Shown here in pieces: positions 2,982-50,820 of a stretch of DNA of 64,000 bases (position 1 is its first letter; the number at the start of each line of letters is the position of its first letter). Both the position numbers and the translations under genes were made by a program. Below the pieces are notes generated by a model that saw nothing but the letters and a program-made list of their open reading frames with translations, was not told the origin of the DNA and did no database searches. Origin of the DNA: Rhea pennata. Its lineage: Eukaryota; Chordata; Aves; Rheiformes; Rheidae. The DNA lies in contig NC_084665.1 of the NCBI RefSeq assembly GCF_028389875.1, positions 123,212,602 through 123,276,601 of the forward strand, in the 5' to 3' direction.

Positions 2982-3035
2982 ATTATTATTATTATTATTT
3001 TACTTAAATTTAAAATTTGATTTAAATTTTAAGTA
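2982..3035. repeat. (ATT)6 microsatellite and AT-rich near-palindrome
   Basis: Six ATT units at 2982-2999 run into a TTTAAATTT-rich imperfect palindrome (3001-3035). The surrounding 2800-3470 is AT-rich intergenic DNA with no gene seen. Confidence 0.7.
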
Positions 3036-3476
3036 TTTTTTGAGTTAAATTATTGCCAACAACAAAGTAATTTAGATTTGGCCTATGGGCTGGCTGTAAA
3101 ACAGGAATAAAGACACTGCAATCCCCTCCTTAAAATGCTTTTAAAAATGCTTCAATATTTGCTGATGAAAACTACTTATATAACTAAATGGCATGTTTGT
3201 ATATCTATTTTATTTTACAATTATTTCTCCTATGGCTGTACAGTTTAAAATATTGTGAGTTGTATAATTATCATGCATTTGTTTATAACTGATGTGTGAA
3301 TGTGTTGAGCATATTATTTACCACAGGTAGTTAGTGAGTTAGAAATGTAAAAATGCAGAGAGGTGAGGTGATGAACCCTAGAGCTAGATGCTCTAGCTTT
3401 ATGGATCCTTTCTCTCTTTCATATTTCATGCAAAGCAATGTAATCTCCCTGGTCTGTGTAGCTGCTCTCCAGGGTT

Positions 3477-6443: not shown

Positions 6444-14313
<7,870 letters not shown>

Positions 14314-28100: not shown

Positions 28101-31100
28101 TCCAATACTATGTTGGTATGACTGGTTTATGTTTTTTTTTGACTAGTGCAAGGGTATGAGTTCTAGGCAGGTTGGTGGCCGCACTGCTGTCTGAGCAGTG
28201 TGTTATTGCTGCAGGACTATCAAGTAGTTTTTCCTGAAAAATTGTGTGGTTTGGGGAAAGGTTTGTGTAGAAGGTTCAATACTGAATGTGACCAGCTCCT
28301 CAGGCAGTCCCTGACTGCTGTAAATGTCAGGGTCTGGGAGATGTGTTGTAGTCAGAGTGTGGGTAAGAGACAGGAACCACTGTGGCAGGATTTAAATCCC
28401 ACAGAGAAATTTGCAAACATATAAAGGTCAGATAGAAGTTAAACTTTGAATATCAACCAGACTCGGATGCCGAACAGTTTTTGAAAATCTGTTCTCTTGG
28501 GGTTTCAAAGATACATAGACCTTATACTAGGATATGGACTGGATGAGGAGGAAAGTGTCTTCTGTCAAGTATTCATAGAATTAGATCCTCATTTGCCTTC
28601 TGCATTTTAAGATTTGGTGACTTAATTCTTCAGGTGACCTTTCAGAGATCAGTTGTCACCACTGTGGTGAGAGAAACTCCTGGGATCTCTCTCAAAGAAA
28701 CAAACGCTTTTTCTCATGTAGGTAATAATGACATGTTTTGTTTTTTGTCTAGGTTCAGTGACTTGTCCTGCAAAATCCAATGCTGCTTTCAAGTCTGGAG
28801 AAAAATACCCACTCCTCATTTTTTCCCATGGACTCGGAGCTTTTCGGTAATTCTACAGTTTGTTGACAAACTGTTTTTACTGTCTACAAAGAAAACAGCT
28901 TCCAAGAATGGTACTGAACAGCTTTTCGCAGAAGGGGTTAGATCACCATACAGTTGAAACAGCTTTTGAGAGCAGACTGCTAAGTATCAGTATGCCTCCA
29001 GTGTAATCAATGCCAGCAAATAGAAGCAGAGGCTTCGGTTTACTGATTTCTATTTCTGTTTTTTGGGGGAGGGGAGGGAGGTATTTACTGTTAAAATTAG
29101 CTAGTTAATATTTGGACAGGTCTTTGAAGCTGTAAAGCATCAATGTGCTTTTCCAATTGTTAACATTTTTTTTAAACAGATACTAAGATTTTTTTTAAAC
29201 AGATACTGAGATAGTAACAAGGTACTGTGGAACAGTAAGCGTAGAAGACGCTTACATGACTGGCATACAAAAGCATGTATGGCTGGCAAATTAAAACAAG
29301 AAACATTGAAATACAGCTAGCACATACGTGACTTAGTCAACGTTTACAGAACCATGTAAAAATAATTATGTTGCGTGTGTATAACCAGAGTGTGGTTTTA
29401 ATTGCAGGACTATTTATTCTGCTATTTGCATTGAGATGGCTTCCCAAGGTTTTATAGTTGCTGCTGTGGAGCACAGGCATGTATACTGCATACCTTTGAG
29501 TTTTAATTGAAACAAACTTTTTCATATGGTTCTACTGCTGTGATTTCATCTTGTCAGCAAAGTCTGAGATCTTATGTTTAAAAAATAGTTGCTTTGACTA
29601 AAGAGGGTTCATTTTTCTCAACAATAGCCGTAATTAAAAAGGGGCAGAATATGACGTTACTTGTAGATTTTTTTTAAAAAAAAGCAAAACTAATATAGCC
29701 TTCAAATTCCCTTGTATTTAGCTCAACTTTTAGCTAAACAAAGGGAAATTAATTTGAAGTCTATGACTGAAAAGACCTGTCATAGGTATCATTTGTCATT
29801 CTTAAAGCATACTATTTTTCTCTTTTATTATTAGAACCTGGAGGATAGAAAGGTTGAGGGACTTTTGGTGGGGTTAATTCCTTATTTAGAATCTCTTGTC
29901 TACATCACTTATAACTGCAGTAGCACTAAATTGCGAGCCTGCATTTCTTAAGACTTCAAATGATTTCCCTCAAACCAAATGGAATATATCTTCAGAAATA
30001 ACCTTTTGTCTGTATTACAGAGATGAATCAGCTTCAGCAACATATTACTGTAAAAGAAAGTCTGTTTCTGAGCCACAGGAAGAGTCCACATTGAACATGG
30101 AAAAGGAGTGGATCTACTACAGGAAACTGAAGTCTGGAGAGGAAGAACGATCTTTGCGTCACAAGCAGGTACTCATCACAGATCTGTTCTCTACGAGGTC
30201 AGGCGGGAACGGTGTGCGTTTAAGACTGATGAAAGCTAGGACACTCACTCCTTTTGGTTAGATTTGCAGGTCCTCTGTCAGCATAGCTGTGGATCAAAAG
30301 CACGAGTATGATTCGTAACTGATGAAGCTGTAGTGGCAAAAGCCCTGAGTGCAGATAGAGTCATCCCTTTCCATGAGCAAAATGAGTAATATTGGCCAAA
30401 CGTAGAAGTGGAGGGGGAAGTAGCTTGTATGCAGGAGTATTGGAATACTTGGACAGGGAGGTTCTTCCATGTAGAAGTTTATATTGACACCAAATACTTC
30501 TTTAACATGACTTAGCAGATACAAAAATGCACAGAAGCCCTATAGTCCTGAAAATGTGAACATCAACAACAGCTTTCTTCATAGCATAATCTGCTTCCTC
30601 GGTGAAGTTTTCCCATGAGGTTGCAATGTCATGCTTAGGCAGCTCTGGCTGTTTCTTCTTTGTGTTACATGTTGTTCTTTAAGTGATATGGAGTTGAATT
30701 CAAATGTCTGTGTGGCCTTGGGCCTGCTTTAGCTTTATTTTATTTACTATTGCATAGCAGGGTGAATCATTTCTGCTCTAAGGGGAATGATTGCTTCATC
30801 ATCTTCAATACACTTTAACCCAGTTTATAGCTATGTAAACAAATGCAGACTTGCTGATTATATGCAGCATCCATACTAGACATGATACAGCAAAACTGAC
30901 AAGCTCTTCCAAGCACAGACTTGCCCTTTGAAATATGGGAGTATTTTTTTTCCACCCAATCCAAGCCCATCAAAAGCCCGGGGAGTGTTTCTTTTTATCT
31001 CACTAGGCCATAGAGACACCAGTACAAGTGACCTTTCCTGTGTCCATGCAACATCCTACTTAGGAACCTAAATTGATAATGTTTGAGCTTATAAATAACC

Positions 31101-34100
31101 TACAGGAGCTGTTGCCTGGAAATTTTACCGGTGAAAGTCAAGAGTTTTTTTGAGAGGCTTGAATTTCAGTGATATATTTTGCTGGCTGTCTACACTCCGT
31201 GGGTCACCTGTAACAGTACTGTTCTTTGATTATTTTTGAAGCTTTTTAATAAAATCTCAAAATCAACACCACTTCTTATACTAACATTTAAAACCAGTCT
31301 TTGCAACAGCTTTACTGCAGTTGCAGTACGAATGTAAGAATGCATATGTACACAGAACAGTAAGGGCCCTGACGCAGATTCTTATTTTGGGTTTATCCAG
31401 TGTAACGGCAGTTTCAAAGCTATCATGCAGAAAGGGCAAGTGGTGTAATGACATTTGTTCACTGAAGCGAGCACGAGGGGGAGCCGCCAGTCAGCTTTCG
31501 TTGCCTATGTGTAATGTATGCCTCTGCACCTCCCCACAACCTGTTAGGCACGGGACGAAGGAGTTAAAAGGTCTTTGGCATATGCCATAGATTCCTCTTT
31601 GCACAGAACTAGATCAGCTTAAGTTCTGTGACCACCGAAAGTCAGATTTGTTGTTTATCAAAAGCTGACAGAGTTCTATTATACAGATCAGGGCTACGCT
31701 TCAGTATAGTACTTACCGTATCTGTAACTTAGGGAAAAAATCGGACTAATCTTGTGTCCAAAGGACCTGCAAGTTTAGCAGCTGTCTAGTAATTCCACCA
31801 CTCTGTCCTATCTTCTCTCTCTTTCCTAGGTGCAACAAAGAGCACAGGAGTGTATCAAAGCCCTCAATGTAATTCTTGAAATTAATTCAGGAGAAGAAGT
31901 AATGAATGTACTTAATTCAAACTTTGACTGGAATCTCCTGAAGGTGAGTGAAAGGCAGTGATTTCATTTAATTAAAAGCCTAATAATGTTTCCAGTTTCC
32001 CTCTTACGTTTCTAAACTGGTTCCTGTATACTGTTCTGAAGATCACGTTTCAGATTTATAAACATATTTTCATATCACCTCAAGCTGGATAGATTGGTAA
32101 GAGCTGGAATCATGCTCTTCCTACTTCAGTAGGGTCTGGTCTCTTAAAAAAAAAAAAAAAAATATTCCACAAAGAAAAGATTGGGAAACAAAGTCTCTTA
32201 TAGCATCTGGATTTTTTTGACAGGATTCTGTTGATACTAGCAGAATAGCTGTGATGGGACATTCTTTTGGTGGTGCTACAGTTATAGAGAGTCTCAGCAA
32301 AGAAATTAGATTCAGGTAAGTATGTAAAATAAAGGCAAGGACATTTGGCACTTCAGAGGTTGGGGGTGGAGGGGAAAGGGCCTTACCTAAGATCCCTCAA
32401 CCACTAACTCACTCAAAGAAAAGTGTTGTTTGCCACATACTATTTTCTCAACTCATGTTTCTTTGAAGCCTGGGAACTGGAACATAGCTGTATCATATTT
32501 TATCATGATACTGTGGGACCCTGCAGAAGCTCCAGTGCCCACCTGCAGCTGGTAGTGGAGATCAGCAAATGAAATGATGGACTATTCTTCCCCCACATTA
32601 AAAATTATTTTGAAACAAATCCATCTTCCTATTCAGTATCCTAGATACAGTTTCTCCTTCCTATGTTTGCTGCAAATCAAAGCTTCCATACAAAGCTTTC
32701 TACCTCTGTGAAAATATCCATAAGTTGTTTTTTTGACAGGTGTGGCATTGCACTGGATGCTTGGATGCTTCCCGTAGGTGATGACATTTACCAAAACAGT
32801 GTTCAACAACCACTACTTTTTATCAACTCTGAAAAATTCCAGTGGGCTGATAACATCTTAAAGATGAAGAAGCTTGGCTCCAATGACACAAACAAGAAAA
32901 TGATCACTATCAAGTAAGTATGAGGAATCCATCCTCTCCCTCTAGTTGGAGACAAACCTTTGCACATAAAACCTGCTCTCTTGTTGGAGCTGTTCAAGCA
33001 AACAGTTCCATGTACCTGCCTGGAAGCGATGCACTCATTGCTATCTTGAGGCCCAGGCTTTCACTGCACATTTAAATTAGATGGCAATATGTCTCCACCA
33101 GTAGAGAGAGAGAGAGAAACATATCCCAGAGCAGCCAGGAACCCTAACTTTAGGATACACTAAGGTGTACACCCCTGCGCTGGGGCACAGGTTTCATTCT
33201 GAGCCTCATGCATCATCACTGAACACTTTAAATATACTTTGGGTGCAGTTGCGCACTCAGCTAGTAAATGCACTGCGTACAGGCAATGGACTCCCATATA
33301 ATCCACCTATACTCACAATAGAGAGGCAACTTGATGATCTTGAAATTTTGCCAAGCCCATTCTTCTATTGCTGCCCCAGTTCTAGCGACTTACAAAACTT
33401 GCCTTCCCTCTGTGGTTAGGACAGAGTTCATTGCTAATCTTGTATACTCCAGTTCCTGAGATTAACCTGCTTTATCTGCTAAAAAATATATGATGCATGA
33501 CACTGAAGACTACTTTGCAACCTATGTAATCTTTTAATTGGAAGACACTGTTCTTAAGGCTATTAAACATTTTCTATTTGCAGGGGATCAGTACATCAGA
33601 GCTTTCCCGACTTTACCTTTGTGAGTGGAGAACTTGTTGGAAAATTTTTCAAATTAAAAGGAGAAATAGATCCAAATGAAGCTATTGATATTAGCAATCA
33701 TGCTTCATTAGCCTTCCTGCAGAAACATTTGAGTAAGTACCTATGTTCAAGTCAAAATGTGGAGTGACTCTGCTTTATTATTGTGAACATTATATATAAC
33801 CATTCCACTTAGAACAAGATTGAAAATGAGTATTGCAGAAGAGTCTAAGAACCAACACCCAATTCCTATTGTTTTAAATATGTAAGAATAGAGTGGCAGT
33901 TTCCCTGCATAAAACATACTATTCCCATACTTTGCTGAGTTCTTTCATTTACAAAGATGAAAAAAACCCTCTTCCTATGATCTGATTTTTAGGTGTATCT
34001 TTATAAGAATTTGACTCCTTAACTCATTTCATTTTTTTTCCCCCCTCAAATATTTTATAGGGCTGAAGAAAGACTTCAGTAAGTGGGATTCGCTAGTGGA

Positions 34101-34164
34101 TGGCATAGGACCCAATGTTATTCCTGGCACCAATATTGATTTGTCTCCAGCTCAACCTGAGTAA
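25106..34164 (+). CDS. PLA2G7: PAF acetylhydrolase, PLA2G7/PAFAH2 family (ten coding exons)
   Basis: A serine lipase that removes the short sn-2 acyl group from platelet-activating factor and oxidised phospholipids. Exons: 25106-25230, 27965-28115, 28753-28846, 29408-29476, 30021-30168, 31830-31943, 32224-32315, 32740-32913, 33584-33732, 34061-34164. Phases are consistent throughout. Starting at ATG 25132 gives 397 residues. The triad by family position is Ser239 (GHSFGG), Asp262 (ALDAWM) and His318 (GSVHQ). Also conserved: [44 protein letters not shown]. Locus fits PLA2G7. No signal-peptide exon was found; the N-terminus MGTSNT and the length resemble PAFAH2 (intracellular). Exon 25106 could instead continue from an unseen upstream coding exon. 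The fourth exon ends in a GC donor. Family certain, exact ortholog less so. Confidence 0.88.
26344..26673 (+). mobile_element. CR1 LINE 3' fragment
   Basis: A 5'-truncated CR1 covering the polymerase C-terminus ([20 protein letters not shown]) and 3' end (GGTTGGACTAGATGATCTCC, then TTACTGATTCTATGATTC). Very close to the copy ending at 10889, so the same young subfamily. It sits in the first coding intron of the PLA2G7-like gene. Confidence 0.9.
29477..29482 (+). promoter_or_regulatory. PLA2G7: Non-canonical GC splice donor in the PLA2G7-like gene
   Basis: The exon ends GAGCACAG and the intron begins GCATGT; the acceptor is TATTACAG at 30013-30020. Only this junction keeps the conserved [13 protein letters not shown] reading. 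The nearby GTATAC donor (29481) would put the next exon into an immediate stop. Confidence 0.7.
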
Positions 34165-34584
34165 CTAATACAAAGAAGTTTGTAAATGCCATGGACATCA
34201 TGACACTAATGCTGGCCAGATATTACGGAGATAGAGGATAGTTAGTAACTTACACAACTTTTGGGGTATGGAACAAAAAAAAGATATTAGGCTATACTGT
34301 CAACATGTAAAAAGGTTTTTAATTCAGATGAGATAATGGAATCCTTTGAAATACACAAAGATTAGTTGAATTTCTTTAAGCTTAACCTAAGCCACGCTTC
34401 AAGTCAATTTGCATCCAGCAAGCCTTCTTTGCATTTCAGAAACAAATGGAAGACTTTCTACAAACTACCTGAAAGATTCAGCTATGCTCTGACAAGAGCT
34501 GTGAGTGAGAACAGGTTTCTGCTCCTTTTAGCTAGAGATCTGCCAGTGGAAGAAGCTCTCAAAAACTGCCATCATAGAAACCAC

Positions 34585-34590
34585 AATAAA
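34585..34590 (+). terminator. PLA2G7: Proximal polyadenylation signal candidate, PLA2G7-like gene
   Basis: AATAAA about 420 bp past the TAA stop. A second AATAAA at 35791-35796 would give a 1.6-kb 3' untranslated region. The ORF inside this stretch (34366-34641) has no coding support. Confidence 0.4.
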
Positions 34591-35790
34591 AGAAGATGTT
34601 ATTTTAAAATAACAAGTGAGAAGACGGAATTTTTGTTCTGACATACAACTTTTATACAAACACCTCCATTTTCAAGATTTGTGTTTACTGCCATACTCTG
34701 AGAGTGTTTCCCTTCCAAAAGCTGCTAAAATGGCCAATCGTGTTGTAGCTACCATAGTTCTCTTTAGGTAAAGCTTTGAGCAGGGCACTCGTCATTAATC
34801 TTTCAGCAATACTGCTGTAGATAGTATGGAAGAGACATTCGTCACTTCTACTATTGCTATTAAGGAGGGGTATGCGATGCCACAGTCTGATTGTTTGATC
34901 ACCTTGATATTCTAATGCTCCACGTAGTTATCCCTAGTTAAGGTATTAGCATTGCTGTCTCTTATCTGTGAAGTAGGAGGAGTTGGATTTGCTAACAGCT
35001 AAAAGCAAGGCTCTGGTTCTTGGAATGAGATTCGTCAAATCTGCCAGGATCAAGAATGACTGCTAAGCAAATAAGCCTTGCAAAAGGGGGACTACATCTG
35101 ACTGTAGCCTGTTTGCTTCAAAGTAAGGTTACAGACAAAAATAGAACTGAACAAGTAACACAGTTAATCTAAGTTAATGTAATGAAATATTTATATGATC
35201 TGTGGTCACAACATCTAAGGTCTGTTTTTCAGAATTTAGTTTCTTAATTAAATTCTTTCCAGCCCACCATTGTGTCTTGTCTCTACTAAGGGAACCAAAA
35301 TTTGCAAGTGTTTCTTATGGATCTGTGATACAAAGGAAGACTATCATGTCAGAGACCTGGAATTCTTAAGTCTGCAGCTGTCCAAGAAAGGGAAGAACCT
35401 GTAGTAGATAGTAGCATGGAACAGGACTATCCTACCACTAAAAATCCCTTTTCCATATGTGAGGAGGAAAGAAAAAAAAGACCAAAAGTATGAACAGCTG
35501 CAGCTGTTTAAGAGGTCCCTACCACACTGTAGGCATGCAGCAGCAGAACTGTTTTAACAGTTCTGCTTCACATTTACAAGAAAGGTTTTAGCTAGCACAA
35601 TTAAGGACATCATAAAAACACATGTGATGTTTCAAAGGAGTCAGCACAGCTGACATGGCTCTAGAGGACTGCTTAGGGTCAAAACAGAACTGCAAGACAT
35701 GCATAGCTACAACTAACTGCAAAATAGCTGAAGACATTCTGTGTGCACGTAGCATGTGGACATGTGCACTAGGAAAGAGAAAGTGTCATT

Positions 35791-35829
35791 AATAAAAAGT
35801 GGACAGCATATGCCAGTACAAGCTTTATT
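35791..35829. terminator. Back-to-back polyadenylation signals of convergent genes
   Basis: AATAAA on the plus strand (35791-35796, PLA2G7-like side) and AATAAA on the minus strand (35824-35829, TDRD6 side) lie 27 bp apart. If both are used, the transcripts' 3' ends overlap slightly. Confidence 0.45.
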
Positions 35830-36414
35830 CTAGCTTTTTCCATTGCTTAATGAAAGCACCAAATTCAAGACTTCAAACCAAAATAACTTTTCTTCCAAAT
35901 AGACAAAAATTCCCCCAAATGCCCTCAGCTTTTCTTAAAAAAAATAAAAAAGAAAAGAAATAACAAACTATTTTAACCCAACTTTTCAGAAACTGAACAT
36001 CAGTAAGCAGTAGTGTGCAACACAGTAGCCTATACAGTAGTTCACAAGAAACCTTTGTCCAAGGAAAGCCGACTAACAGCTCAACACAAGTCAGTGCACA
36101 CAAACATTCAGTAAGACATGCCAGTCAAAGGCTGCACATTCTTATTTAAGAGATGTCAGCTTTGTTAAGATGCCAAGCTGACAACAGTCTACCAACAAGC
36201 ACTATTCTTTGACACAGAAGTATGGTAGTGAAAGGCATTTGTTCAGTTATGTAGAAGAAACATTCAGAATGCTATCTGCTTATATCCTTGCTTTCTTAAA
36301 AAGACATTTTCATAGGAGTGTTTTGTGTACATGGGTACTTGTTCACTCGCTTTCAGGAACGCTGGAGGACACAAGGATCTTCAGCTAACTCTGAACTGCA
36401 GCCAGTTTGCTTTT
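35805..36414 (-). other. Candidate terminal exon downstream of TDRD6
   Basis: A strong minus-strand acceptor (TTTTTATTCTTTCTAG, exon from 36414) is followed about 590 bp on by AATAAA at 35829-35824. It may be the last, mostly untranslated exon of a TDRD6 transcript or of an unrecognised minus-strand gene. Read in phase 0 it gives KSKLAAVQS then stop; in phase 1 it gives 20 residues. Confidence 0.4.
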
Positions 36415-37478
36415 CTAGAAAGAATAAAAAGATTACACCCATCAAGGCATTTCTAGAAACATACAAATGCATTAATACCTAAAAACCATAGCTCTACAAA
36501 ACTCCAGGTTTATCTAAATCCTGGCCCATATTACAGACTACATTTCTTTAAAGTAATTTATAATGAGAAAAATTGCAAGACAGTTGAAATAATCAAACTG
36601 CCCAAGCAGATTAAGTGCGCACTGTTCCCAGATACTAGTTTTGAGTTAAACTATTCCATCCCATCCCTCAGCAGGGATGTGAGCCACTGCAGATTTTTCT
36701 GCATTCTGTGGACTGAATATATTCCATTTAAACTGTCTTTACAAAGCCACTGGCCAGGTATTCAGCAAAATTCAGCAAAATTCAGTTCTGTACAACATGG
36801 GTGAGACACACTTGGGCTCAGATTTATTAAGAAAAATTTGCTGAGAGGGTGCATAAAGTAAAACACACTCATGGAGCATTTAACAGGCAGAAGCTGAATT
36901 TAAACAGCAACAGCAGCTGAAGAGGAAAAAAAATACTGAAGTACTATAAAACCCACAAAATATATATTTGAAAACAGAAACAGCAAGATCAAGAACAACC
37001 TTGCACTAAGGAGAAACAAAGGCATGCACTTCCCCACCTGAGTGGTACTACTGTCTGACCAACAGAGTCTCAGCAGTTTTTACATTGGAGTAGTGATTGT
37101 ATTCACATTTAACCAGGACTAAAATGCTCATAGACCACCTATTGTGTTCATTACCAAGTACATAGCAAATACGTATTTGTAAGTTGCATGTATTTTCTTG
37201 CAGAGTCTGTGCATAATGAAAGATGTTCCCTCAAAACTGACACAGTACAGGCAGAATTTACAGGATCTCCATTTTAACATTTTAATCAAGTTCTATGATC
37301 TATCTACTTGTCAAGCAAAAAAAAATAGTTATCAGTTGCAGGCTTCATTACTGTTATCCATAAACTAGACAGCTTTTAGCATAACTGTATGTAAATACAG
37401 TTACCAATTCAGTTACTGAAAATAAAAATGCTACTATAGGGTTAGTTCAGTCTCCTTCAGACAAACACTAGTCAACCA

Positions 37479-37635
37479 CTGAACAGGTTGCCCAGAGAGG
37501 TTGTGGAGTCTCCAGCCTTGAAGATACTTAAAACCTGACTGGACATAGCTCTGAGCAACCTGGTCTAGCTGACCCTGCCTGGGGTAGAAGGCTGATCTAG
37601 ATGATCTCCAGAGGTCCCTTCCAACTTCAACTACT
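37479..37635 (+). mobile_element. CR1 LINE 3'-end fragment
   Basis: Reads CAGGTTGCCCAGAGAGGTTGTGGAGTCTCC, then GATCTAGATGATCTCCAGAGGTCCCTTCCAACTTCAAC. It differs from the 26.5-kb subfamily, so it is an older copy. Confidence 0.85.
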
Positions 37636-37993
37636 AGTTCTACACATTGTATGAATACTGCATAAACAAAAAGCCTCTGCTGACTTCGCTGGTGTGCAGA
37701 ATGGATACTTGGGTTCTTCAGTAACACTTCAAAGTTCTAAGCAGTGTTAAGGACTTGCAAGCATTATTCACAAACCATCTTTGCAACCATTAAGATGGTG
37801 TTATTTCAGTTTTAGAGTCAGAAACCATGATCCACTAAGGCGTTTGGGCATTCAAGTCCAAAACTTCAATCCTTAACATCTCTGTCCAGCAGTCACCTTG
37901 CCTCAGAAGTATGTGCTGGGGTAGGGGGGGAGGAAAGCATTATGGTGGCTGTCCATGCCCCAAGCCCTACCAGAATCTCTACTCTGAGCATAC

Positions 37994-38126
37994 CCTCTCC
38001 AGTTTGTCCACAGGGCGCATTGCACTAGGTTGAACAAATACATGCTCAGTTGATTTCTGTGCAAGAGACAGCATCAGTTGTTGTTGCCTATGATCACTTA
38101 AACTCTGACAGTATATGAACCAGTCA
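37994..38126 (-). other. Candidate unassigned exon (44 codons open)
   Basis: A 133-nt minus-strand block between a strong acceptor (poly-T then TTTAG at 38127-38129) and a GTATGC donor at 37993. Entered in phase 2 it is open for 44 codons (DWFIYCQSLSDHRQQQLMLS to RPVDKLER) and leaves in phase 0, joining in frame to the exon at 36414. TDRD6 exon 3 ends in phase 0 and cannot enter it. It may be a 3' untranslated TDRD6 exon or part of another transcript. Protein family not recognised. Confidence 0.35.
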
Positions 38127-38301
38127 CTAAAAAAAAAAAGTATCAAATGCAGTATTAGATTAAAAAACACAATCAAAAAAGGCATTTCAAATGAAATTTC
38201 TAAAACAAAATATTTACTGGAAAATTAAAATGCATCTGAAGACTGAGTACATAAGACCTTTGGTAGAGACAAGGTCATCTTACCTTGAAGCGCTGACTCC
38301 T

Positions 38302-41300
38302 CTAGTAAGGACTCCAAGTTATTTGTTGCATGACTAACTGCCTAAACAAAGGGGGATTCTGTTAGGAAGTGCAGGCACAATTGCCAAAATAGTTTTCTGT
38401 TGATGCATTTCTCTAGACTAACTTGTTACAATAGCACTGCTGGACTCCTACTCAGCACCATTTTCCTGCTATAACTCACTACAGATGCCTTTTCCCTTTT
38501 TCGCTTCCAGACAAAAGTTATACATAAATAATAAAATGGAAATTCATTCTGCTATCACCTTCAGTTACATAGCTGATCAACTGAGTTTTAGATTCTAGAT
38601 ATGAGTTCTTCATTGGTTTGTGCTTCACGAACAACACCATTTAAAACCTCATTATCACTTCTTCACTGTGGGAGTGATGGAGCACTGGAACAGATTGCCC
38701 AGAGAGGTGGTGGAGTCTCCTTCTCTGGAGGTCTTCAAGGCCCACCCGGATGCAACCCTGTCTAACATGCTCTAGGTGACCCTGCTGAGCAGGGAGGTTG
38801 GACTAGATGATCTCCAGAGGTCCCTTCTGACTATGATTCTATGATTCTATGATTCTATGATTCTATGATTCTATGATTCTATGATTCTATGATTCTATGA
38901 TTCTATGATTCTATGATTCTATGATTCTATGATTCTATGATTCTATGATTCTATGATTCTATGATTCTATGATTCTATGATTCTATGATTCTATGATTCT
39001 ATGATTCTATGATTCTATGATTCTATGATTCTATGATTCTATGATTCTATGATTCTATGATTCTATGATTCTATGATTCTATGATTCTATGATTCTATGA
39101 TTCTATGATTCTATGATTCTATGATTCTATGATTCTATGATTCTATGATTCTATGATTCTATGATTCTATGATTCTATGATTCTATGATTCTATGATTCT
39201 ATGATTCTATGATTCTATGATTCTATGATTCTATGATTCTATGATTCTATGATTCTATGATTCTATGATTCTATGATTCTATGATTCTATGATTCTATGA
39301 TTCTATGATTCTATGATTCTATGATTCTATGATTCTATGATTCTATGATTCTATGATTCTATGATTCTATGATTCTATGATTCTATGATTCTATGATTCT
39401 ATGATTCTATGATTCTATGATTCTATGATTCTATGATTCTATGATTCTATGATTCTATGATTCTATGATTCTATGATTCTATGATTCTATGATTCTATGA
39501 TTCTATGATTCTATGATTCTATGATTCTATGATTCTATGATTCTATGATTCTATGATTCTATGATTCTATGATTCTATGATTCTATGATTCTATGATTCT
39601 ATGATTCTATGATTCTATGATTCTATGATTCTATGATTCTATGATTCTATGATTCTATGATTCTATGATTCTATGATTCTATGATTCTATGATTCTATGA
39701 TTCTATGATTCTATGATTCTATGATTCTATGATTCTATGATTCTATGATTCTATGATTCTATGATTCTATGATTCTATGATTCTATGATTCTATGATTCT
39801 ATGATTCTATGATTCTATGATTCTATGATTCTATGATTCTATGATTCTATGATTCTATGATTCTATGATTCTATGATTCTATGATTCTATGATTCTATGA
39901 TTCTATGATTCTATGATTCTATGATTCTATGATTCTATGATTCTATGATTCTATGATTCTATGATTCTATGATTCTATGATTCTATGATTCTATGATTCT
40001 ATGATTCTATGATTCTATGATTCTATGATTCTATGATTCTATGATTCTATGATTCTATGATTCTATGATTCTATGATTCTATGATTCTATGATTCTATGA
40101 TTCTATGATTCTATGATTCTATGATTCTATGATTCTATGATTCTATGATTCTATGATTCTATGATTCTATGATTCTATGATTCTATGATTCTATGATTCT
40201 ATGATTCTATGATTCTATGATTCTATGATTCTATGATTCTATGATTCTATGATTCTATGATTCTATGATTCTATGATTCTATGATTCTATGATTCTATGA
40301 TTCTATGATTCTATGATTCTATGATTCTATGATTCTATGATTCTATGATTCTATGATTCTATGATTCTATGATTCTATGATTCTATGATTCTATGATTCT
40401 ATGATTCTATGATTCTATGATTCTATGATTCTATGATTCTATGATTCTATGATTCTATGATTCTATGATTCTATGATTCTATGATTCTATGATTCTATGA
40501 TTCTATGATTCTATGATTCTATGATTCTATGATTCTATGATTCTATGATTCTATGATTCTATGATTCTATGATTCTATGATTCTATGATTCTATGATTCT
40601 ATGATTCTATGATTCTATGATTCTATGATTCTATGATTCTATGATTCTATGATTCTATGATTCTATGATTCTATGATTCTATGATTCTATGATTCTATGA
40701 TTCTATGATTCTATGATTCTATGATTCTATGATTCTATGATTCTATGATTCTATGATTCTATGATTCTATGATTCTATGATTCTATGATTCTATGATTCT
40801 ATGATTCTATGATTCTATGATTCTATGATTCTATGATTCTATGATTCTATGATTCTATGATTCTATGATTCTATGATTCTATGATTCTATGATTCTATGA
40901 TTCTATGATTCTATGATTCTATGATTCTATGATTCTATGATTCTATGATTCTATGATTCTATGATTCTATGATTCTATGATTCTATGATTCTATGATTCT
41001 ATGATTCTATGATTCTATGATTCTATGATTCTATGATTCTATGATTCTATGATTCTATGATTCTATGATTCTATGATTCTATGATTCTATGATTCTATGA
41101 TTCTATGATTCTATGATTCTATGATTCTATGATTCTATGATTCTATGATTCTATGATTCTATGATTCTATGATTCTATGATTCTATGATTCTATGATTCT
41201 ATGATTCTATGATTCTATGATTCTATGATTCTATGATTCTATGATTCTATGGTATTTTTCAAAATGAACCAGTTACTCTGCTAAGTGATTTGTGAGAATT

Positions 41301-44300
41301 CATGCATTTCAGCATTATTCTAAAATTCTTGATTAAAACAGTCTTCCAGTAATGTTTCTTCATTCAAGTACTGTTCTTAGTCCAAATGGCTGACAGTTTT
41401 ATTGGCTTATATAAATCTTTCAGAGAATGAAAGACATGACCTCTTGAAGAGAAATACTTTGTCTTTCTATTTTTAGAGTGACCCATTAATCACAGCTAAA
41501 CTCAGAAACCTTCTGAGTTTAGGAAGTCTACGCTTTTTCCTTTCCCTCCTTCCCTTCCCCGCAGTTCTCAGCTACACCACCACCATACCTCAGATGATCT
41601 GCAAGCCCAGTCAGGAATACCATTCCACACATTTTCAGGATCCACAATCTCCTCATTGCCACTGGAAAGATTCAAAACCTGTACAGACAGAGCCAGCTTG
41701 TATCTAGCACAACTATAGATCCAGAAAATATACTTGGTAAATATATTCTCTACAAAACATAGTAATGGGCAAAACACAATTGAGAATTCACTAGGTTAGA
41801 GAAAGCTTTGAACCCAGATTTTCCAAGGAAAAACAGATGCTTAAAAATTAACGGTTAGTAAAACTGGTATCACCACTGAATCTGATCCACAGAATCAAAT
41901 TTAAATTATTTCACATGCAGTTCCTGCTAAAGCCCCCCAGCACAAGGCTCTCTTTAGACTGAAAGGATCTTAACTCAAGCACCTAGGAGACAAAGGCTGG
42001 GAAACACCTGCAAGATCTGAGCCAGCAAGAAATTTGTTTGCAGGTTCCCCTGATGCCTAACATGGGCGTTAGCACCAACGCTCATCTACTGAATGTAGCT
42101 ACAGCTAGCTTTAGATACTCAAGGAACTCTAAAGAAACTGGCTTCTGATCTCAGGCATCCAATCTTCAAAAAAAGTTACTTCTATGAAATGATCATTTGA
42201 ATTTATAACCTTAAATGACAACTTAAGTGATAGGTATGTATGTATAAACAAAAATTAGTAGGTACCTGAAGAGAATTTTTTCATTTACCTACTTATTCCA
42301 CAACTTAGGGAACAGCAGCAGAAAAAGGCAGCCATTGTATTATAATTAGTATCAAGGTAACTGGAGGGAGTTAACTTTTAATAGAGTTCTTCATTCAATA
42401 AAGATATAAATAATACACTGTTTCAGTCAAAAATGTAAGTTACACTAAAATTCAAGTTTCTTCCTAAATTTCTATTCCTTTAGGACTAATTTTCTAACAT
42501 GGTCATTTTTTTACTGACAGTTTATCTGGCATCAAACCAGTAACGAAGCTGCAAAGCAGAACACTGACTTGCAACATACAGATAACAGAACGACATGGTG
42601 GGGCCAAGGGGAAGTATGCATCTTAAAACTGAGAGATTTGTCTCTGGTTTTCCCCACTAGCCTTAAGGGAATAAGACCTGAAGCGAGCATGAAGTGTTGA
42701 CATATAGTATTCCACTCAGTATGAGGCAACTGTTTCTATGTAGTCTAGAAGTCCAGAATCAGCATTTTCAATACTAAATATTTTAATTTCTGTAACAAAC
42801 TTCTGCAAAATAATTCAAGTTTGGAGGAAGACAGAAAAAGGACCAGTTCTTATGAATGCAGAAAGAGCATTCAAATCGTACTTACCCTGGTACCTTTTTC
42901 AGATACCTCCAAAATGCGAGCCTCGCACCACTTCAGAGACGTCCACACCATGCATTTGGAACCGACAGCAAAGCCCTTTAGATTACAAGTATACTCACTG
43001 TGTTCTACAAAAACGATGACATATCAATGAAAGAGGGGGGTGGGGACCAAAAAATAAGTCTCAGTTGTCTCACAACCCTGTTCCCACTCCCCCTCCCTAC
43101 CCTTTCCAAACTATTTAGCATTTGATAGTTAAAAAACTACTATCTTCAACAGTCCTGAAAAGGCATTTCTTGCTTAGAAAGCTTTCCATTTATAAATCTG
43201 TTAACTTCTCAGAGTAAAATTATCTCTTGTTAGACTGTCACATTACCCATGAGACTACACATATTCTGGTGTCCACAACCCTTCAGTAAAGGCTGAGCTT
43301 AAGACTAAACTAAAGCCTCAACAGAATAGTAGGGAATAAAATCTAGTTTTCCCACCAAAAAAAGTTATGTTCGAAAGTATGCTACATTTTGGTAAGTGAG
43401 CTCCTTAAAAATCAGATACTTCACCTGCACAGCAGTCAGCCAAGTTCTCATTTTGCTTTTTTCCTATTTCTTCATCTGCAGGCTTACAGTTTAAAGACTG
43501 CTCATTTAGAAGTTTATTTCCACATTCTTCAAATGAGTCGGTCAAGTCTTGTTTCATCCATACTTCCACAGAATGGCCATCTTGCTTTTTTTGCCATTCC
43601 TTACATTTCTCAATTTTGCAGTCACATGATTTTACAGTACAAACAGGTCTCTGATTTGTCATCAAGTCTGTTGTAAGGAATGAAAACAAACTTCTGCTAT
43701 TTGCAGAAGTTTGCAGCGTTGTGTGTTCCAGGCCTAACAAGTCCTCATCTCCATCCTCCTGAGAAGGCTGCATATCAGGTAGCACCAACTCAAGAAGCTG
43801 TTTAATTTCAGCATTTAGCACTGACTGTATGTCATGGGTCTCTAGTTCCAGGTGTTTCTCAGCTCCACCAAATGAAGATAACATCAGGGTAGGATCTACT
43901 TCCACCCAATCATTTTGCATAGCTTCCACTTCATGAATCCCAGGCAAATCCAATTCCAGTGCCTGTGTTTTATCTCCCAAAGAAAGTTGTACATCAGATG
44001 AAGATAATTCTAAGGTCTTCTCTCTATCACTAACTGAAGGCACCAAGTTCTCTCTCTCATTAAGCGGTGGTGATATTTCAAAAGACTTCAGAGCTGACAA
44101 TTCACCTGTCTCATCACTCGAGCATGGCACTTCAAGTGATTCCAGTTCCAACGTGTTCTCTTTTGCTTCACTGCCTGCAGTTGCCAGCATTTCAAGTGAT
44201 TCTAACTCCAAAGGCTCCTTTGTTTTTTCACCAAGAGAAGACTGCACTGAAAGTGACTCTAGCTCCAATATGAACTCTTTTAGATCATCATATGAAGAGT

Positions 44301-47300
44301 GCATTTGTAATTTTTCCAGTTCTAATAATGACCCCGTTTCATCTCCCAAAGGCGGCTGTACCTCGAGCAATGGCCACCCTAGCAGCTCTTCTTGTTTATT
44401 TTCCAGAAGACTGACTGCTTGAACGGTGCCAATCAGTTCTGCTTTCAGCTCAGCATCCTCTACAAATGGTACTTCAGATAGCTCTTGTTCTGCAGCTTTC
44501 ATGTCACTCCCCAAAACACACAAAGAACAGCATTGTGTTGATTCTAGTGACACATCATTATCACTCTCTTTTTCAAACAGAAGGATCTCTTTATCAAAGC
44601 TGTTTTGATGCTCAGCTCTTTTACAGTCATCCTCAGCTTTCACAGACACATGTTCTTCACCAGCTTCTGCTGTTATGCTTGCTTCTACATTATTTGGACA
44701 CATATAAGTTGCATCCAAGAGACATTCAGAACAAAGTAACGCACCCTGCATAGCCCTCTTATCTTCTTCCTGAAATACTGTACAAGTAGAAATAGTTTCT
44801 TTTTCAAGACAAAGATCGGTATTACTACTTGACCCCGTGTCCTCTTTAAAAGGGTTCTCAAGGCTTAGGCAAGCTGTGTCTCCAGCTCCTGTACTGACCT
44901 TCCAAAAACATTTCATCTCTTCATTAATACTCTTCCCACAAGTTTCCAACTTGACAACAGACAGGGGAACTTCAGAAGCTTTATCCTCCCGAATTTCTAT
45001 TACTTTAGCTTCTAACAAGAGTTCTACAGTCATATCATAGAACTTATCTTCTGCTTCACTAAGCCACGAGCCCTCTGAGGAATTAAATCCTGACAGACAG
45101 CAAGGAAATGCTTGATTGGGTATTTTCAGCAATTCACTTGGAATTTGTCTGACCATCTCCATGCCAACAGTTTCCTCAGTTCCATAATCCACATATCTAA
45201 CAACTAAATCGTCACCTTTTATGTTGCTGACTTTCGCTCTGTAGAACTTCCCATCTTCACTGTATTTTGCTATACAAATATCACCGGTTTTAATACAAGA
45301 TCCGCAATCTTTTATGGAGTTTAGGCCAAAATTTTCAGCTTCCTTTATTTTTTCCTCTATATATTTTATGCTTTCTGTATCCGCACCCTGACTCCAAAAA
45401 TATTCTGGACCCTTTACTACTGTGACATAAATTTTTACAGTTTGACCTGCCTCTGGTACCTTCCAGATAAATGATTTCGAATGACTTATATTGGAAATTT
45501 CATTTTGCTCATTAGGAAGCAAAGGCTCACACACTTTCACCACTTCAGCATTGTTTTTTCTTTTGTCAAGTACTTCTTTTGACTGAGATCTTTCCCTATT
45601 TGGAAGGGTCTCATTAACTAAATCCACTGTTATTATACCTTGACGGTCACTAAGAATAACTTCCCATTTATCCTCAACTTTCTCTACAAATTCACATGTT
45701 ACCTGAATATCACTTGTTCTCTGGGAAAAGTAAAGCACTACTTTCTCTGTCCAATTTGTAGTGTTTTTACATTTAAGTCCACCTAGCGAGCAGTGAATAC
45801 TTATTGCTGGAATACATGATGAGTCTTCAGGGAGTCTACATACCTGACCAACATTAATTACTGAAGTATTACCATAATCAATATATTGCACGCTAATCAA
45901 ATTATCAGAAGTCTTATCTTTTATTACAGCTCTATACCGTAAGTTGTCTTCTGAATAAACAGCACTGATTAAGTCTCCTGCTTGCAAGAGTTGTCCACAA
46001 GGGTTCTCCACTCTTGTCTTACTGTTCAAGCTTTCTGAAATACTGTTAAGTTGAGACTCATCACTTACCAGTTGAACATAAAAATCTGAAGGATCATTTA
46101 CATGAGAAATATACACTAACATTTTAAGAGCTGGTGTTATCTTCTTCTGAGGTAGATCAGATATATTTTTAAATGGTATACACTGTCTTTCAGTATCAGA
46201 TTTAAGATATGATGGTTTATCTTTCTTGACAGGGGAAAAGCAGTCTCTGTTCTCCATTTTATTTTGTGGCAAGGCATCTTTATTGCCATGCTTTTCAGAC
46301 TCCACTAATTCAGCTGCCAGTTCTCTCTTTGCAACAGTCTGGAACAGGTTTGTATCTTTTTGCTTTAAGTGCATTTTGCTACCCCTCTCTCCTCCTTGGG
46401 CTTCAGGGCTCTGCTTTTTCCTTTCAAGAAGCCTTCCTGAATACAAAGATGACAACTCTGCAGTCTCATTCCTCTCTTTCACATTCGTATTTCTAGGGCC
46501 TGAAGTTTCATCTCCTACACACCTACACAGCTCCACACTGTTTGTTAATCTTAACCCTTCCTTCAATTTTGCATTAATTTGAGTATTACCATCAAATAAC
46601 TCAATCAGCAGTTTGCCATCAGATTCCTTTGCTACTACTATTGCCTTTAACCTCCTTTCTAGGACAGTTTGCTTAAACCACAACGTAGCTTCTCTTGGAA
46701 GAGTAGATATATCAGATAAAGAACACTTTATGGCCTGCATTGGCAAAAGCAAGACATCATAGGCACCACTGGGTATAGGAAGCAGATCATCTTTCTTTAC
46801 CAGCTCTGTGTTCCCAAAATCCACAAAGAAGACTTCCTTATTAGGTTTTGTTTTTGTAACTACTCCCCTGTACCAGTGATTGTCAGTATACCTTGCAAGA
46901 CACAAGTTCCCAGAATTTTGTGAAGTTTTTAAACTAGTCATTATTTTACTTAGATGACTAATGTTTTCCGTAAGCTGTGTCAAGACATCTGTACATCTTG
47001 CAAGCTGGCAGTAAAATTTCCATGGATCATCAACATGTGTAATATAAATGTCTTCCTCACTCCCAATTTTGATATCATGCATAGAGTAATAGTAAGAATG
47101 AAGCTGAACAGAGGATGCCAGAGGTTTCTGAGGTGATAGAGGTCTAGCCAGACCTTTTTCTATCAGAAACTGGCAAGCACTCTGAAAAGGTGTCATTAAG
47201 TCCACAATATTAAATAGTTCTTTATTGTTTATCGAAGCCAAGGCAAATATCGTACACTTCAGCTCCAAGTGACATGACGAGGCATCAATAAACTCCTGAA

Positions 47301-50103
47301 ATGCCAGAATTGCTTTTTCATCCCAAACAAAAGGATCCTGACCATTTGGTTGGATTAAGTTGTAAAGGCTGCATCTGAAAGCCTGAGCCTTTAGGTTAAG
47401 AAAGTTTTCATTAGTTGAACGGAGATTTGTTCTAGAGACCAACTCTCTGTTGCCATAGTCAACATATATTACTTCTACTTGTTCTGTAGAAGTAACTTCA
47501 CTAACAATTAGAGCCCTGTACCATTTTTCATCCTCTGAGTACTGGGCTAAACATACAGGATTTGGCCAGATGTGTGGCTGAGATGAATTCTTACAATAGT
47601 CCTGAATTTCAGCCATTAATATCTTAAGGTCATGACAATTTCTACTTAATTGACACCAAAAATAACCAGGACTTTCAACATATGATACAACTACATTAAC
47701 TGTACTTCCAACTTCTAGTTGACCTCCATAACAACCTGGCTTCATTTCCAGATAATTCCGTGCAAGAGAGGAAGGCAGGTTTTGTGTGCCCTCACACTTT
47801 TTCTCACTAGGAACAGATTCACCAGTTTTTGAACTGTGAATGGCAACAGGACCACCTTTGACCAGAGTCACGTAAGGATTTAATGCTCTATTATTTCTCT
47901 TTGGTTCAGATTCTCCAAGTCTTTCCGCTATACTTATTTGGTTTTCCTCCCCAACACATTCCACAGACGAACCTTGCCTTGGGGCCTGATCAGATGCTTT
48001 TTGTAGTGTCTCAGGTATTTCAGACCTCTGGTATTTAGCATATCCTCCCTGGGCCATGATTTTACTTACACTTCTCTCTCTTAATTGGGATAGGTCAAGA
48101 ATTTCAACCACATATTTATCACCCTGTGTGCCTAAAACACGAATCCTTAATCCCTTGTTCAGTACAATCTTTCTGAAGGCAGACACAGATTCTTCACTCC
48201 AACCCCCCCTCAGAGGGGAGGTACCTGCCAAGCAGCACTTCAGAGCTAATGCAGGTAGTTCCTGGAACTGAGGGAGCAGCTCCTTTACCTCACCACAGTC
48301 TACAGTTCCCGCATCGCCTCTGTCCACCAGATATATTTCTATAGCACTGTCCAGTACCTTGGTGACTACAGCTCGATGAAAGACACCATCTTTCCTGCTG
48401 GCACAAAGAGATCCAGGCTGCAGGTCTCGTACAATATCCAGGTTTGTGGCTTGGGAGTAAAAATTCCACATACTCTGTATAAGCTGGTTCAAGAGCTGGC
48501 GATGCTCCTGGAGCCGTAGCCAAAACTCGGAAGGATCTCGGAGATAGGAGATCTGCGCATCGTAGAATGCGCCTAACTTCAGATGCACACCAACTATGGG
48601 AACAGACACCAAGTGTCTTTGCATTAAAGCAACAGGAGGTGCTCCCGGTGGTGACCCCAGGTCTTCAGCTTTAGATTCCTCTACTTCAAGCTGCTCGCGA
48701 GTCTCAGTTTGCCTGACCTGCATAAGGCTGCTAGCCAGGCAGCGAGCCTGCACCCCAAAAAGACAATTCAAATTCATGCCATCTTCACCATACAGGCTCA
48801 CATAATAGAGATGTTCAAAGCAGTTAAAAGTTTCAATGCGAGCATTCACTCCCTTGCCTAACAACAAGGCTTTCAGCTCGCTGATCTGGGATGGGGCCCA
48901 GCCATGACCCCCATGTGAGATACCCTGAAGGGCACATGGGTAAGTCACCACGGGCATGCGAAAACACTCAACAGGCAAATGGCGCAAGTTAGCCACAGTC
49001 ACAAACTCTTTCCTGCCATAGTCCACAAAGATCACTTGGGCCACTTGTTGGTCCAGCTCCCCAGCAACAATTTCCAGCAGGAGTGCCCGGTACCAGTGGC
49101 CACCAATGCCACGGGCAGCACAAGGTGAGCCCAGCTGCGGTAATAGATCCTGCTCCCAAGTTGCTCCATCATAAAGCTGGTGGATGGTATCAGAAAGGCG
49201 ATGGATCTCCTGGGACAGGCTCCGCAACTGGCAATATATGCGGTGCGGGTCAGAGATCTGGGTCACTAGCACAGGCTCTGTCACTCCTAGCTGAAGCTGT
49301 GGGTAGAAGTAATCCAAGGCAGGTAACACAGATGGATACAAAGGGAAAACATGGAGGGGCTGTGGCACTGTAGAAGCTATGAGTGGATGAGCTGGAGGCT
49401 GCAGCTTGAGCTGGTTCTGCAAGTGGGCATGAGCCAGGCAGCGCTTGAGCATCAGGCAGAACCAACTGGGGGTGACCTGCTTGGCCAGGCCCAGGTGATG
49501 CATCTGGGCCGCAAGCTGGGGCAGCTCAAGCACTGTGAGGAGCTGCGGCATCATCACTTCCCGCACCAGGCCAGACACCTCCTTGCCATGCAGGTAACCG
49601 AGGAACTCAATAGCCCTTGCAGTGCCAGTGGAGACCACCAGCTGCCCACAGGCCACTGTCCTGCCACCTCCAAAGAGCACCAGGTCAGCCACGACACAGC
49701 CCAGCACTTCAGGCGGCAGGTGGAAAAGCTCCTCACAGCCTCGTGCCAAGTAATAGGCAGTGGCAGGCACCGTGTGGCCCTCATCGAGCAGGAAGACACG
49801 GTAGTCCCGGTCATGGCGACTCACCACACGGCAGCGGTGCCAGAGACCTCCCAGCTCCACGAGGCACAGCTCCCCGACGCACAACTCAGCTCCACCGGCC
49901 ACCACCCCCGCGGTGCCCGGCGCAGCCACCAGACGCGGCCCCACCGCGGCCTGCACATCGCGGTGAAGGCGGGCGTAGTCCTCGCGGCGCTCACCCAGCA
50001 GCCCCCAGAGCCGCACGACGGGCGCCTCCGGGTGCGCGTCCACAGCACAGACCCGCAGCGAGACGCTGCTGCCGGGGCTGGGCACCGCCGGCGCGGAGCA
50101 CAT
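38302..50103 (-). CDS. TDRD6: Tudor domain-containing protein 6 (four coding exons)
   Basis: A germline scaffold of the chromatoid body/nuage that binds dimethyl-arginine marks on Piwi-pathway proteins. Exons: 50103-43425 (6.7 kb), 43004-42886, 41678-41589 and probably 38337-38302; about 2,307 residues (human about 2,096). Start M at 50103 is chosen because MCSAPAVPSPG matches the family N-terminus; the frame is open 62 codons further into the promoter. Seven Tudor repeats are seen, with DP-x2-FYCQL-type entries near residues 288, 525, 810, 1028, 1340 and 1567 and VDYG-type strands near 358, 881, 1095, 1410 and 1638; the first unit is around 80-110. Exons 2-3 add an eighth, partial Tudor (VGSKCMVWTSLKWCEARILE, then EEIVDPENVWNGIP). 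Residues ~1900-2137 are LELE-type repeats. The last exon (LVMQQITWSPY) is the least certain part. Confidence 0.93.
38660..38830 (+). mobile_element. CR1 LINE 3' fragment that seeds the octamer array
   Basis: A short 5'-truncated CR1 end (GGAGTGATGGAGCACTGGAACAG, then GAGGTGGTGGAGTCTCCTTC, then GGTTGGACTAGATGATCTCC). Its 3' terminus runs directly into the (ATGATTCT)n array. Polymerase C-terminus only. Confidence 0.9.
38831..41251. repeat. 2.4-kb perfect octamer array (ATGATTCT)n from a CR1 tail
   Basis: About 302 uninterrupted copies of an 8-bp unit with no visible variant. The unit is the normal CR1 3' terminal repeat (usually 2-4 copies), and the array follows the CR1 end at 38830 directly. 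It lies in the inferred last coding intron of TDRD6 and makes up about 2.4 of its 3.25 kb. Confidence 0.97.
43700..44400 (-). repeat. TDRD6: Degenerate LELE-type repeats inside TDRD6
   Basis: About eleven units, mostly 18-20 residues, of the pattern xLELExLxxQxSLGxETKE (for example FILELESLSVQSSLGEKTKE and PLELESLEMLATAGSEAKE). They are acidic and leucine-rich, lie between Tudor 7 and the C-terminal partial Tudor, and probably account for much of the extra length. Confidence 0.8.
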
Positions 50104-50104
50104 C

Positions 50105-50820
50105 GCGCCGCTCCCCACACGAGGCGGTGATGACGCCGGTAGCGCCAGCGCCGCCACCCTCATAGAGCGCCGCGCCCGCCCACGTGACCGCCCGGCGCCG
50201 CGCCTCGCGGCCCGCGGAGAACCGTTAAAGGCTCGCGCGAGGGTGGGGCGCGGGCAGGCAGCCGGGGCGGGCGAGTCCATTTTGATCACAGCGGGGGGGG
50301 GAGGAGGGAAGAAGAGGGGGCGGAAAGGGAAAAAGACACTTCGGCCGCTTTTGTTAGAGTGGGAATACTCGGAGGCGCCGTAAGGACGAGGCTAGGCTGC
50401 GCTGGACCTGTAGGGCTCAGCCCAGAGCTAGTTTTCGCTTCTCCTGCTTACGGTGGAACACTCCACGCTGGCCGTAGGAGGTCGGGGGCCGGGGGCGGGG
50501 GAGCCGTTCGTGCTGGGCTTAGCCCCGATTGGTTAGAATGGGGGCCCGGGGGCGGGGCGTGCATGCTGGGCTTGGCGGCCATTGGCTCTTACAGGGCCCC
50601 CGGTGTGAGGGCAGGGTGCGGCGCCGCGTTGTTGCTGGGGCCGGCGCAGGTGGCGCCTCTGAGGGGCTGGCGGCGGCGGCGGGGGTGGGTGCGAGGGCGG
50701 CTGCCCGGAGCCGAGAGCTTGGGCGGGCTCAGCCCCGTGGGGACGGTCCTCACCTGCAGGCTCTGCAGAGGCTCTGCGGCCGTAGTACCTCCACAGGTGC
50801 ACCTGAACTAGAGTCTGGAC
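50105..50820. promoter_or_regulatory. CpG island upstream of TDRD6 with two CCAAT boxes
   Basis: GC-rich, CpG-dense. Two similar units (around 50483-50532 and 50540-50585) each contain GCTGGGCTT and end in ATTGG, giving minus-strand CCAAT boxes at 50528-50532 and 50581-50585. Plus-strand ORFs here (such as 50359-50811) have no family support; a divergent non-coding transcript is possible. Confidence 0.6.
50181..50227 (-). promoter_or_regulatory. TDRD6: TDRD6 proximal promoter: MYB site and E-box
   Basis: TAACGGTT on the minus strand (50227-50220) is a full MYB consensus, 117 bp upstream of the ATG. CACGTG (E-box) is at 50181-50186. A-MYB (MYBL1) is known to drive many meiotic piRNA-pathway genes, so the site fits the gene; use of the site is inferred. 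Confidence 0.5.

What the first reader, a model, noticed from the sequence alone, without database searches (positions are those of the whole stretch)
38831..41251. About 302 perfect copies of the CR1 terminal octamer inside TDRD6
CR1 elements normally end in two to four copies of an 8-bp unit. Here that tail has grown to about 2.4 kb with no visible variant, directly at the end of a short CR1 copy, inside the inferred last coding intron of TDRD6. Perfect homogeneity implies very recent or continuing expansion (slippage or unequal exchange). Such an array could be length-polymorphic, affect splicing of the TDRD6 C-terminus, or produce an AT-rich repeat RNA on either strand. It may also be partly an assembly estimate.
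Basis: partly seen in the sequence, partly recalled or inferred. Interest (0 to 1): 0.75.

Follow-up and report, generated by a model that had tools for sequence, protein, structure and literature searches.

The report
Giant repeat grown from CR1 tail
In what appears to be a bird genome, one old retrotransposon fragment, probably in an intron of a sperm-cell gene, carries an 8-letter tail that is normally one to three units long but has grown to about 302 perfect copies, a possible parallel to the intron repeat expansions known from human disease.

Summary
In detail: window 38831-41251 is 2421 bp of CTATGATT (302.6 units), without one variant, directly behind a 169-bp, 5'-truncated CR1 3' end.

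The array stands alone in this assembly. Exact runs of 5 or more CTATGATT occur at one other place, a 6.4-unit tail. One search finds 1268 tails of about 3 units or more behind one common spacer. The 29 close CR1 relatives fetched have 1.0-3.1 units. The flank is single-copy.

The CR1 body carries at least 3 substitutions not shared with any single one of those 29 relatives; the array carries none. So the array is probably younger than the insertion. The 29 relatives keep a 10-11 bp spacer before the tail; here 3 bp remain.

Best reading: an old CR1 tail expanded recently in place, by replication slippage or template switching, like ATTCT in the Alu tail of human ATXN10 (SCA10). No function is shown. 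It lies in a probable TDRD6 intron; 'last coding intron' is unproven. Long reads from several individuals would decide reality, polymorphism and age.

The parts
38659..38827 (+). 5'-truncated CR1 3' end, antisense to TDRD6
   Evidence: 39 other scored genome copies at 95-96% (rounded) identity; 94.7-95.9% for the 29 fetched; alignment; 5 of 169 positions differ from their column majority
38828..38830 (+). TGA, where the 29 fetched relatives have a 10-11 bp spacer (mostly CAACCTTACTG) between CCCTTC and the tail; probable junction deletion or rearrangement
   Evidence: sequence
38831..41251 (+). (CTATGATT)302.6, equivalent to (ATTCTATG)n; read as (AATCATAG)n on the TDRD6 strand; no variants; 25% G+C
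38342..41588 (-). Candidate TDRD6 intron holding the array: 3247 bp, of which the array is 75%
   Evidence: splice matrices recalled, gene model unverified
41589..41678 (-). Candidate TDRD6 exon 2, 90 nt, open only in frame 0 (VLNLSSGNEEIVDPENVWNGIPDWACRSSE)
   Evidence: acceptor rank 55 of 1119, donor rank 10 of 673; out of phase with the best exon-1 donor
38284..38341 (-). Candidate TDRD6 exon 3, 58 nt, open only in frame 0, ending in a donor
   Evidence: donor rank 1 of 673, acceptor rank 72 of 1119
43405..50391 (-). Large TDRD6 exon: open frame of 2328 codons (stop to stop) with seven Tudor-domain stretches
   Evidence: the name TDRD6 rests partly on recall of the N-terminus

Best explanation
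A CR1 element inserted long ago, antisense, in what is probably a TDRD6 intron, with an ordinary tail of one to three ATTCTRTG octamers. Much later the tail expanded in place to about 302 identical units, with loss of the spacer next to it. The step most likely involved replication slippage or template switching in an AT-rich repeat, in one or a few large jumps followed by homogenising turnover. Shown: CR1 origin, perfection, isolation in the assembly, spacer loss, single-copy flank. Inferred: recency, expansion after insertion, mechanism. No function is shown; the default is a neutral, probably unstable locus removed by splicing.
For: Array perfect and next to a CR1 3' end. The unit equals the avian CR1 octamer ATTCTRTG (PMC8665684, passages). 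Exact CTATGATT runs in the genome outside the array: 82 hits at 3 units, 11 at 4, 2 at 5 (minus the array's own 300, 299, 298 counted); the two 5-unit hits are what the one 6.4-unit tail L073 gives. At least 3 CR1 substitutions are not shared with any single relative against 0 in 2421 bp; 3 in 169 predicts 43 (95% range 9-123) in an equally old array. Spacer kept in 29 of 29 fetched relatives, lost here. L086 has three adjacent copies of a variant unit, a sign of unit duplication in place. St John and Quinn infer octamer gain after insertion (PMC2612034, abstract and passages). (ATTCT)47 is reported to cause replication-dependent instability (PMC11161834, passages), and ATTCT lies in every octamer. 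DNA-parameter folding gives no stable hairpin on either strand, which argues against hairpin-driven slippage.
Against: The dating rests on 169 bp of CR1 and on relatives picked for closeness to it (40 scored of 2717 candidates). Four of the five differences from the column majority occur in 1-6 of the 29 relatives, so few are proven private; with only one private change an array as old as the insertion could not be excluded. The assembly may have smoothed variants or mis-estimated length. The spacer loss could be an unrelated indel. Nothing here separates template switching from unequal exchange.
Confidence: 0.7

Rival explanations
1. Assembly artefact: the true locus has fewer units or many variants, and the assembler or polisher wrote an idealised array.
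For: Perfect purity over 2421 bp is unusual and no read data are at hand. In the 88 loci held (271 kb, with overlaps) the longest array other than this one is 122 bp, and in the window 82 bp.
Against: No N in the window; the 541-bp flank occurs once; 2.4 kb is within the span of single long reads (general knowledge); other tails in the same assembly keep variant units.
Confidence: 0.15
2. The long tail was made at insertion, by reverse transcriptase re-copying the octamer during target-primed reverse transcription.
For: CR1 reverse transcriptase is thought to recognise the 3' hairpin and octamer (PMC8665684, PMC4316615, passages), so stuttering there is conceivable. Four of the five differences of this CR1 copy from the column majority are not unique to it.
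Against: The longest other tail found has 6.4 units. At least 3 substitutions not shared with any single relative against 0 in the array: P(0) is 2e-19 at the point estimate and 1e-4 at the favourable limit.
Confidence: 0.1
3. Growth by repeated unequal crossing-over or gene conversion, with concerted homogenisation, rather than replication-based jumps.
For: Also yields pure arrays; consistent with purity and single location.
Against: Needs a long enough starting array; no exact CTATGATT run between 6.4 and 302 units was found in the genome.
Confidence: 0.25
4. A selected functional element: the array tunes TDRD6 transcription, splicing or small-RNA production in germ cells.
For: It fills about 75% of a candidate intron of a gene whose mouse counterpart acts in spermatids (PMC4858158, abstract and passages); one TCAT per unit on the TDRD6 strand.
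Against: No GT on either strand and stops in every frame; RNA folds weaker than most shuffles; no conservation or expression data.
Confidence: 0.05

Closest known systems
ATTCT expansion in intron 9 of human ATXN10 (SCA10)
   Same: AT-rich unit containing ATTCT, at the tail of an intronic retroelement (there an Alu), grown to kilobases (800-4500 repeats; PMC9099484, passages)
   Different: Octamer rather than pentamer; CR1 rather than Alu; a probable germ-cell gene in a bird; no normal allele, instability or disease known; SCA10 arrays can carry interruptions, this one has none
CR1 3' octamer tails, ATTCTRTG or TTCTGTGA
   Same: Same unit in the same place behind the CR1 3' end (PMC8665684, PMC2612034, passages)
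   Different: One to four copies reported (PMC2612034); 1.0-6.4 in the tails read here; 302.6 in this one
Microsatellite seeding by CR1-L3 LINEs in snakes
   Same: Simple repeats arise next to the 3' end of CR1 elements (PMC6050309, abstract and passages)
   Different: There genome-wide, AATAG, many loci; here one giant locus
Other retroelement-derived tandem repeats (GAA from Alu; HinfI satellite of chicken with CR1)
   Same: Transposon sequence turned into a tandem repeat (PMC6947457, table seen as a passage)
   Different: Other units, other parts of the element, other positions

Membership tests
CR1 3' tail | CR1 3' end directly upstream | tested here: met
   39 other scored copies at 95-96% identity
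CR1 3' tail | Unit is the octamer ATTCTRTG | tested here: met
   unit as given in PMC8665684
CR1 3' tail | One to four copies | tested here: not met
   302.6 copies; range as given in PMC2612034
CR1 3' tail | Spacer between CCCTTC and the tail | tested here: not met
   3 bp against 10-11 bp in 29 of 29 fetched relatives
SCA10-type intronic retroelement-tail expansion | Array at the tail of a retroelement in an intron | tested here: inconclusive
   Retroelement tail met; intron model plausible but unverified
SCA10-type intronic retroelement-tail expansion | Expansion far beyond the normal range of the same locus | not testable with these tools
   No other individuals or related birds are held (one search says the genome has no relatives here); it is beyond the range of other loci
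SCA10-type intronic retroelement-tail expansion | Length instability between generations or cells | not testable with these tools
   Needs reads or pedigrees
SCA10-type intronic retroelement-tail expansion | DNA that unwinds easily | tested here: inconclusive
   25% G+C and no stable fold, but unwinding under torsion was not modelled
Microsatellite seeding | Many long loci across the genome | tested here: not met
   One giant locus; the longest other tail found has 6.4 units

The most novel reading that the evidence does not exclude
The array is a live, hypermutable germline locus: a bird counterpart of SCA10-type expansion seeded by a CR1 octamer, segregating as long and short alleles in a spermatogenesis gene, with large jumps per generation and possible effects on TDRD6 RNA or male fertility. 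It would mean that an abundant avian retroelement carries a latent expandable repeat at the end of its copies.
Probability: 0.15. Interest if true: 0.8.

Novelty: new variant of a known kind. Interest (0 to 1): 0.5.

Why it matters
One search finds 1268 tails of about three or more octamers in this genome, yet only one was found to have run away. That makes it a natural test of when a short retroelement tail crosses the threshold to large-scale expansion, a question studied largely through human disease loci (general knowledge). If it is polymorphic, birds would offer a system for large, pure, AT-rich intronic expansion outside a disease setting. It also suggests that short-read avian assemblies may hide such arrays (inference).

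Tried and rejected
A hidden cap in the pattern counts was suspected because both gave 300. It was rejected by a count: the array gives 298 in each case, and the tail L073 gives the other two in each.

A second CR1 octamer variant, CTGTGATT x4, was searched for long arrays: 3 hits, far apart. Other variant units were not searched.

A second copy or alternative-haplotype contig of the locus was sought with 541 bp of flank: 1 match, the locus itself.

Hairpin-driven expansion was considered: both DNA strands fold to 0 kcal/mol; of 200 RNA shuffles 179 and 200 fold at least as well as the two strands.

Coding of the array was rejected: stops in all six frames.

Species identification: globin exons. 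The hit tables give no organism names. In one search the top six rows are two-stretch fused chains that score twice; the best single-stretch rows are alpha-A chains (3wr1, 3a59, 1a4f), the last two recalled as ostrich and bar-headed goose. I did not check for an exact match and name no species.

The TDRD6 gene structure could not be confirmed from papers. The literal unit search held 631 papers, 15 listed, none relevant by title. PMC4992247 (passages) gave nothing on long CR1 tails in what was shown.

In one search, 21 of 38 loci were parsed (17 had the match on the other strand and printed '-'); after removing the array itself and overlaps these are 15 other places. They are not in any tail statistic above.

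Full report
OBSERVATION. Tandem Repeats Finder and a direct count agree that window 38831-41251 is 2421 bp of CTATGATT, 302.6 units, with no substitution or indel. The other eleven rows reported in the window are 82 bp or shorter. The array starts three bases after a CR1 3' end (38659-38827, then TGA) and ends in a partial unit, CTATG, followed by other sequence.

GENOME. The window is G000:C3:123212602-123276601 of a 1.269-Gb assembly in 180 contigs. Globin exons read from it match alpha-A and beta chains among the solved structures. The hit tables give no organism names; that the best single-stretch rows are bird chains is recalled. With the CR1 octamer this makes a bird the safe reading; the species was not identified.

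ISOLATION. Exact CTATGATT runs were counted in the whole genome, both strands: 382 hits at 3 units, 310 at 4, 300 at 5. The array itself gives 300, 299 and 298, leaving 82, 11 and 2 elsewhere. The last two are what one 6.4-unit tail, L073 on C21, gives. Six units with up to 3 mismatches gave 300 hits, of which 298 are the array and two L073. With the common spacer CCTTACTG in front, which excludes the array, tails of about 3 units (up to 2 mismatches) number 1268, and tails of about 5 (up to 3 mismatches) number 21, of which 20 were read: 4.4-6.4 units. The array is about 47 times longer than the next longest tail found. Tails of quite different variant units could be missed; CTGTGATT x4 was checked, with 3 separate hits.

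RELATIVES. A search with the CR1 fragment gave 2717 first-look candidates, of which 40 were scored: the query and 39 others at 95-96% (rounded) identity. Of these 39, 29 were fetched and aligned. Their tails have 1.0-3.1 units, median 2.1, and 29 of 29 keep a spacer of 10-11 bp between CCCTTC and the tail, which here is reduced to TGA. Two close copies in the window itself (93% and 91%) have about 1.5 units and the intact spacer; a third, at 74%, shows no clear tail. L059 and L060 look like copies of one insertion, so the 29 are not fully independent.

AGE. The CR1 body differs from the column majority of the 29 relatives at 5 of 169 positions (3.0%); the relatives differ by 1.2-4.7%, mean 2.5%. 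Four of the five differences occur in 1-6 relatives, but no single relative shares more than two, so at least three are not shared with any one of them. If the array were as old as 3 changes in 169 bp imply, 43 substitutions would be expected (95% range 9-123) and none is seen; P(0) is 2e-19, or 1e-4 at the most favourable limit. With a single private change the favourable limit would no longer exclude an equally old array. At recalled avian neutral rates of 1.5-2.5e-9 per site per year, zero changes in 2421 bp bounds the age of the present units below about 0.5-0.8 million years. This assumes that the assembly has not hidden variants.

MECHANISM. The tail most likely expanded after insertion. 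St John and Quinn (PMC2612034; abstract and passages) infer that octamer number rises after insertion and give one to four copies as usual. L086 carries three adjacent copies of a variant unit, which looks like unit duplication in place. Neither DNA strand forms a stable fold, so hairpins are an unlikely driver. For ATTCT repeats a review describes replication re-initiation and template switching as sources of large expansions (PMC9099484; passages), and (ATTCT)47 is reported to induce replication-dependent instability (PMC11161834; passages); ATTCT lies in every octamer. Loss of the spacer at the array edge would fit a rearrangement during expansion. That is inference: slippage, template switching and unequal exchange are not told apart here.

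GENE. The minus strand holds an open frame of 2328 codons at 43405-50391 with seven Tudor-domain stretches. I call it TDRD6 on that basis and on recall of its N-terminus; no vertebrate protein set was at hand. Candidate exons at 41589-41678 and 38284-38341 are each open in only one frame, and these frames agree. The second ends in the highest-scoring donor of 673 in the scanned stretch (30000-43600), but the acceptors rank only 55 and 72 of 1119 (splice matrices recalled). The best donor at the end of exon 1 (43425) is in phase 1 and leads into a stop in exon 2, whereas two weaker donors (43564, 43420) are in phase 0 and keep the frame open through both candidate exons. So the array probably sits in a TDRD6 intron of about 3.2 kb and fills 75% of it, but the gene model is unproven and 'last coding intron' cannot be claimed.

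CONSEQUENCE. On neither strand does the repeat contain GT, and stops occur in every frame; it offers no donors and no long reading frame. On the TDRD6 strand it has one AG and one TCAT per unit. In SCA10 the intron is reported to splice normally, although in yeast ATTCT expansions reduced transcription and signalled premature polyadenylation (PMC9099484, passages). I therefore take neutrality as the default. A role in TDRD6 expression is possible but unsupported.

LITERATURE. The octamer is described for nearly all avian CR1s (PMC8665684, passages) and for amniote CR1s (PMC4316615, one passage). Simple repeats next to CR1 3' ends are known on a large scale in snakes (PMC6050309, abstract and passages), and transposon-to-tandem-repeat conversion is reviewed in PMC6947457 (passages). 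Ten searches of the open-access library showed me no report of a CR1 octamer array of this size. In most of them only the top 10-20 of a longer list was shown, and I read listings plus passages of the papers named; subscription papers and bioRxiv preprints were not covered.

VERDICT. A striking outlier in the assembly as given: a new variant of a known kind (retroelement-tail expansion), with recency supported, mechanism inferred and function unshown.

Noticed in passing
L086 (G000:C3:105510887-105510934): A CR1 tail in which a variant unit, ATTCGATG, occurs three times in a row between normal units, suggesting duplication of units in place after mutation.
   Followed up: partly
L073 (G000:C21:4169089-4169136): The second-longest CR1 octamer tail found, 6.4 perfect units.
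   Followed up: yes
window 10697-10865 and 26480-26648: Two further CR1 copies close to the query (93% and 91% identity) with tails of about 1.5 units and intact spacers, serving as in-window controls.
   Followed up: yes
window 43420-43564 and 41589-41678: The strongest donor at the end of the large TDRD6 exon is in a different phase from candidate exon 2, so TDRD6 may have alternative C-termini or the model is wrong.
   Followed up: partly
window 22712-23275 (-): Short open frame with Ribosomal_S4 and S4 domains, resembling IMP3 (name recalled).
   Followed up: no
window 1728-2783 (+): Open frame matching the bitter taste receptor family TAS2R (Pfam E 1.4e-62).
   Followed up: no
L059 and L060 (G000:C149:482251 and C147:1003272): Two CR1 copies with nearly the same flank, probably a duplicated segment on two contigs.
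   Followed up: no
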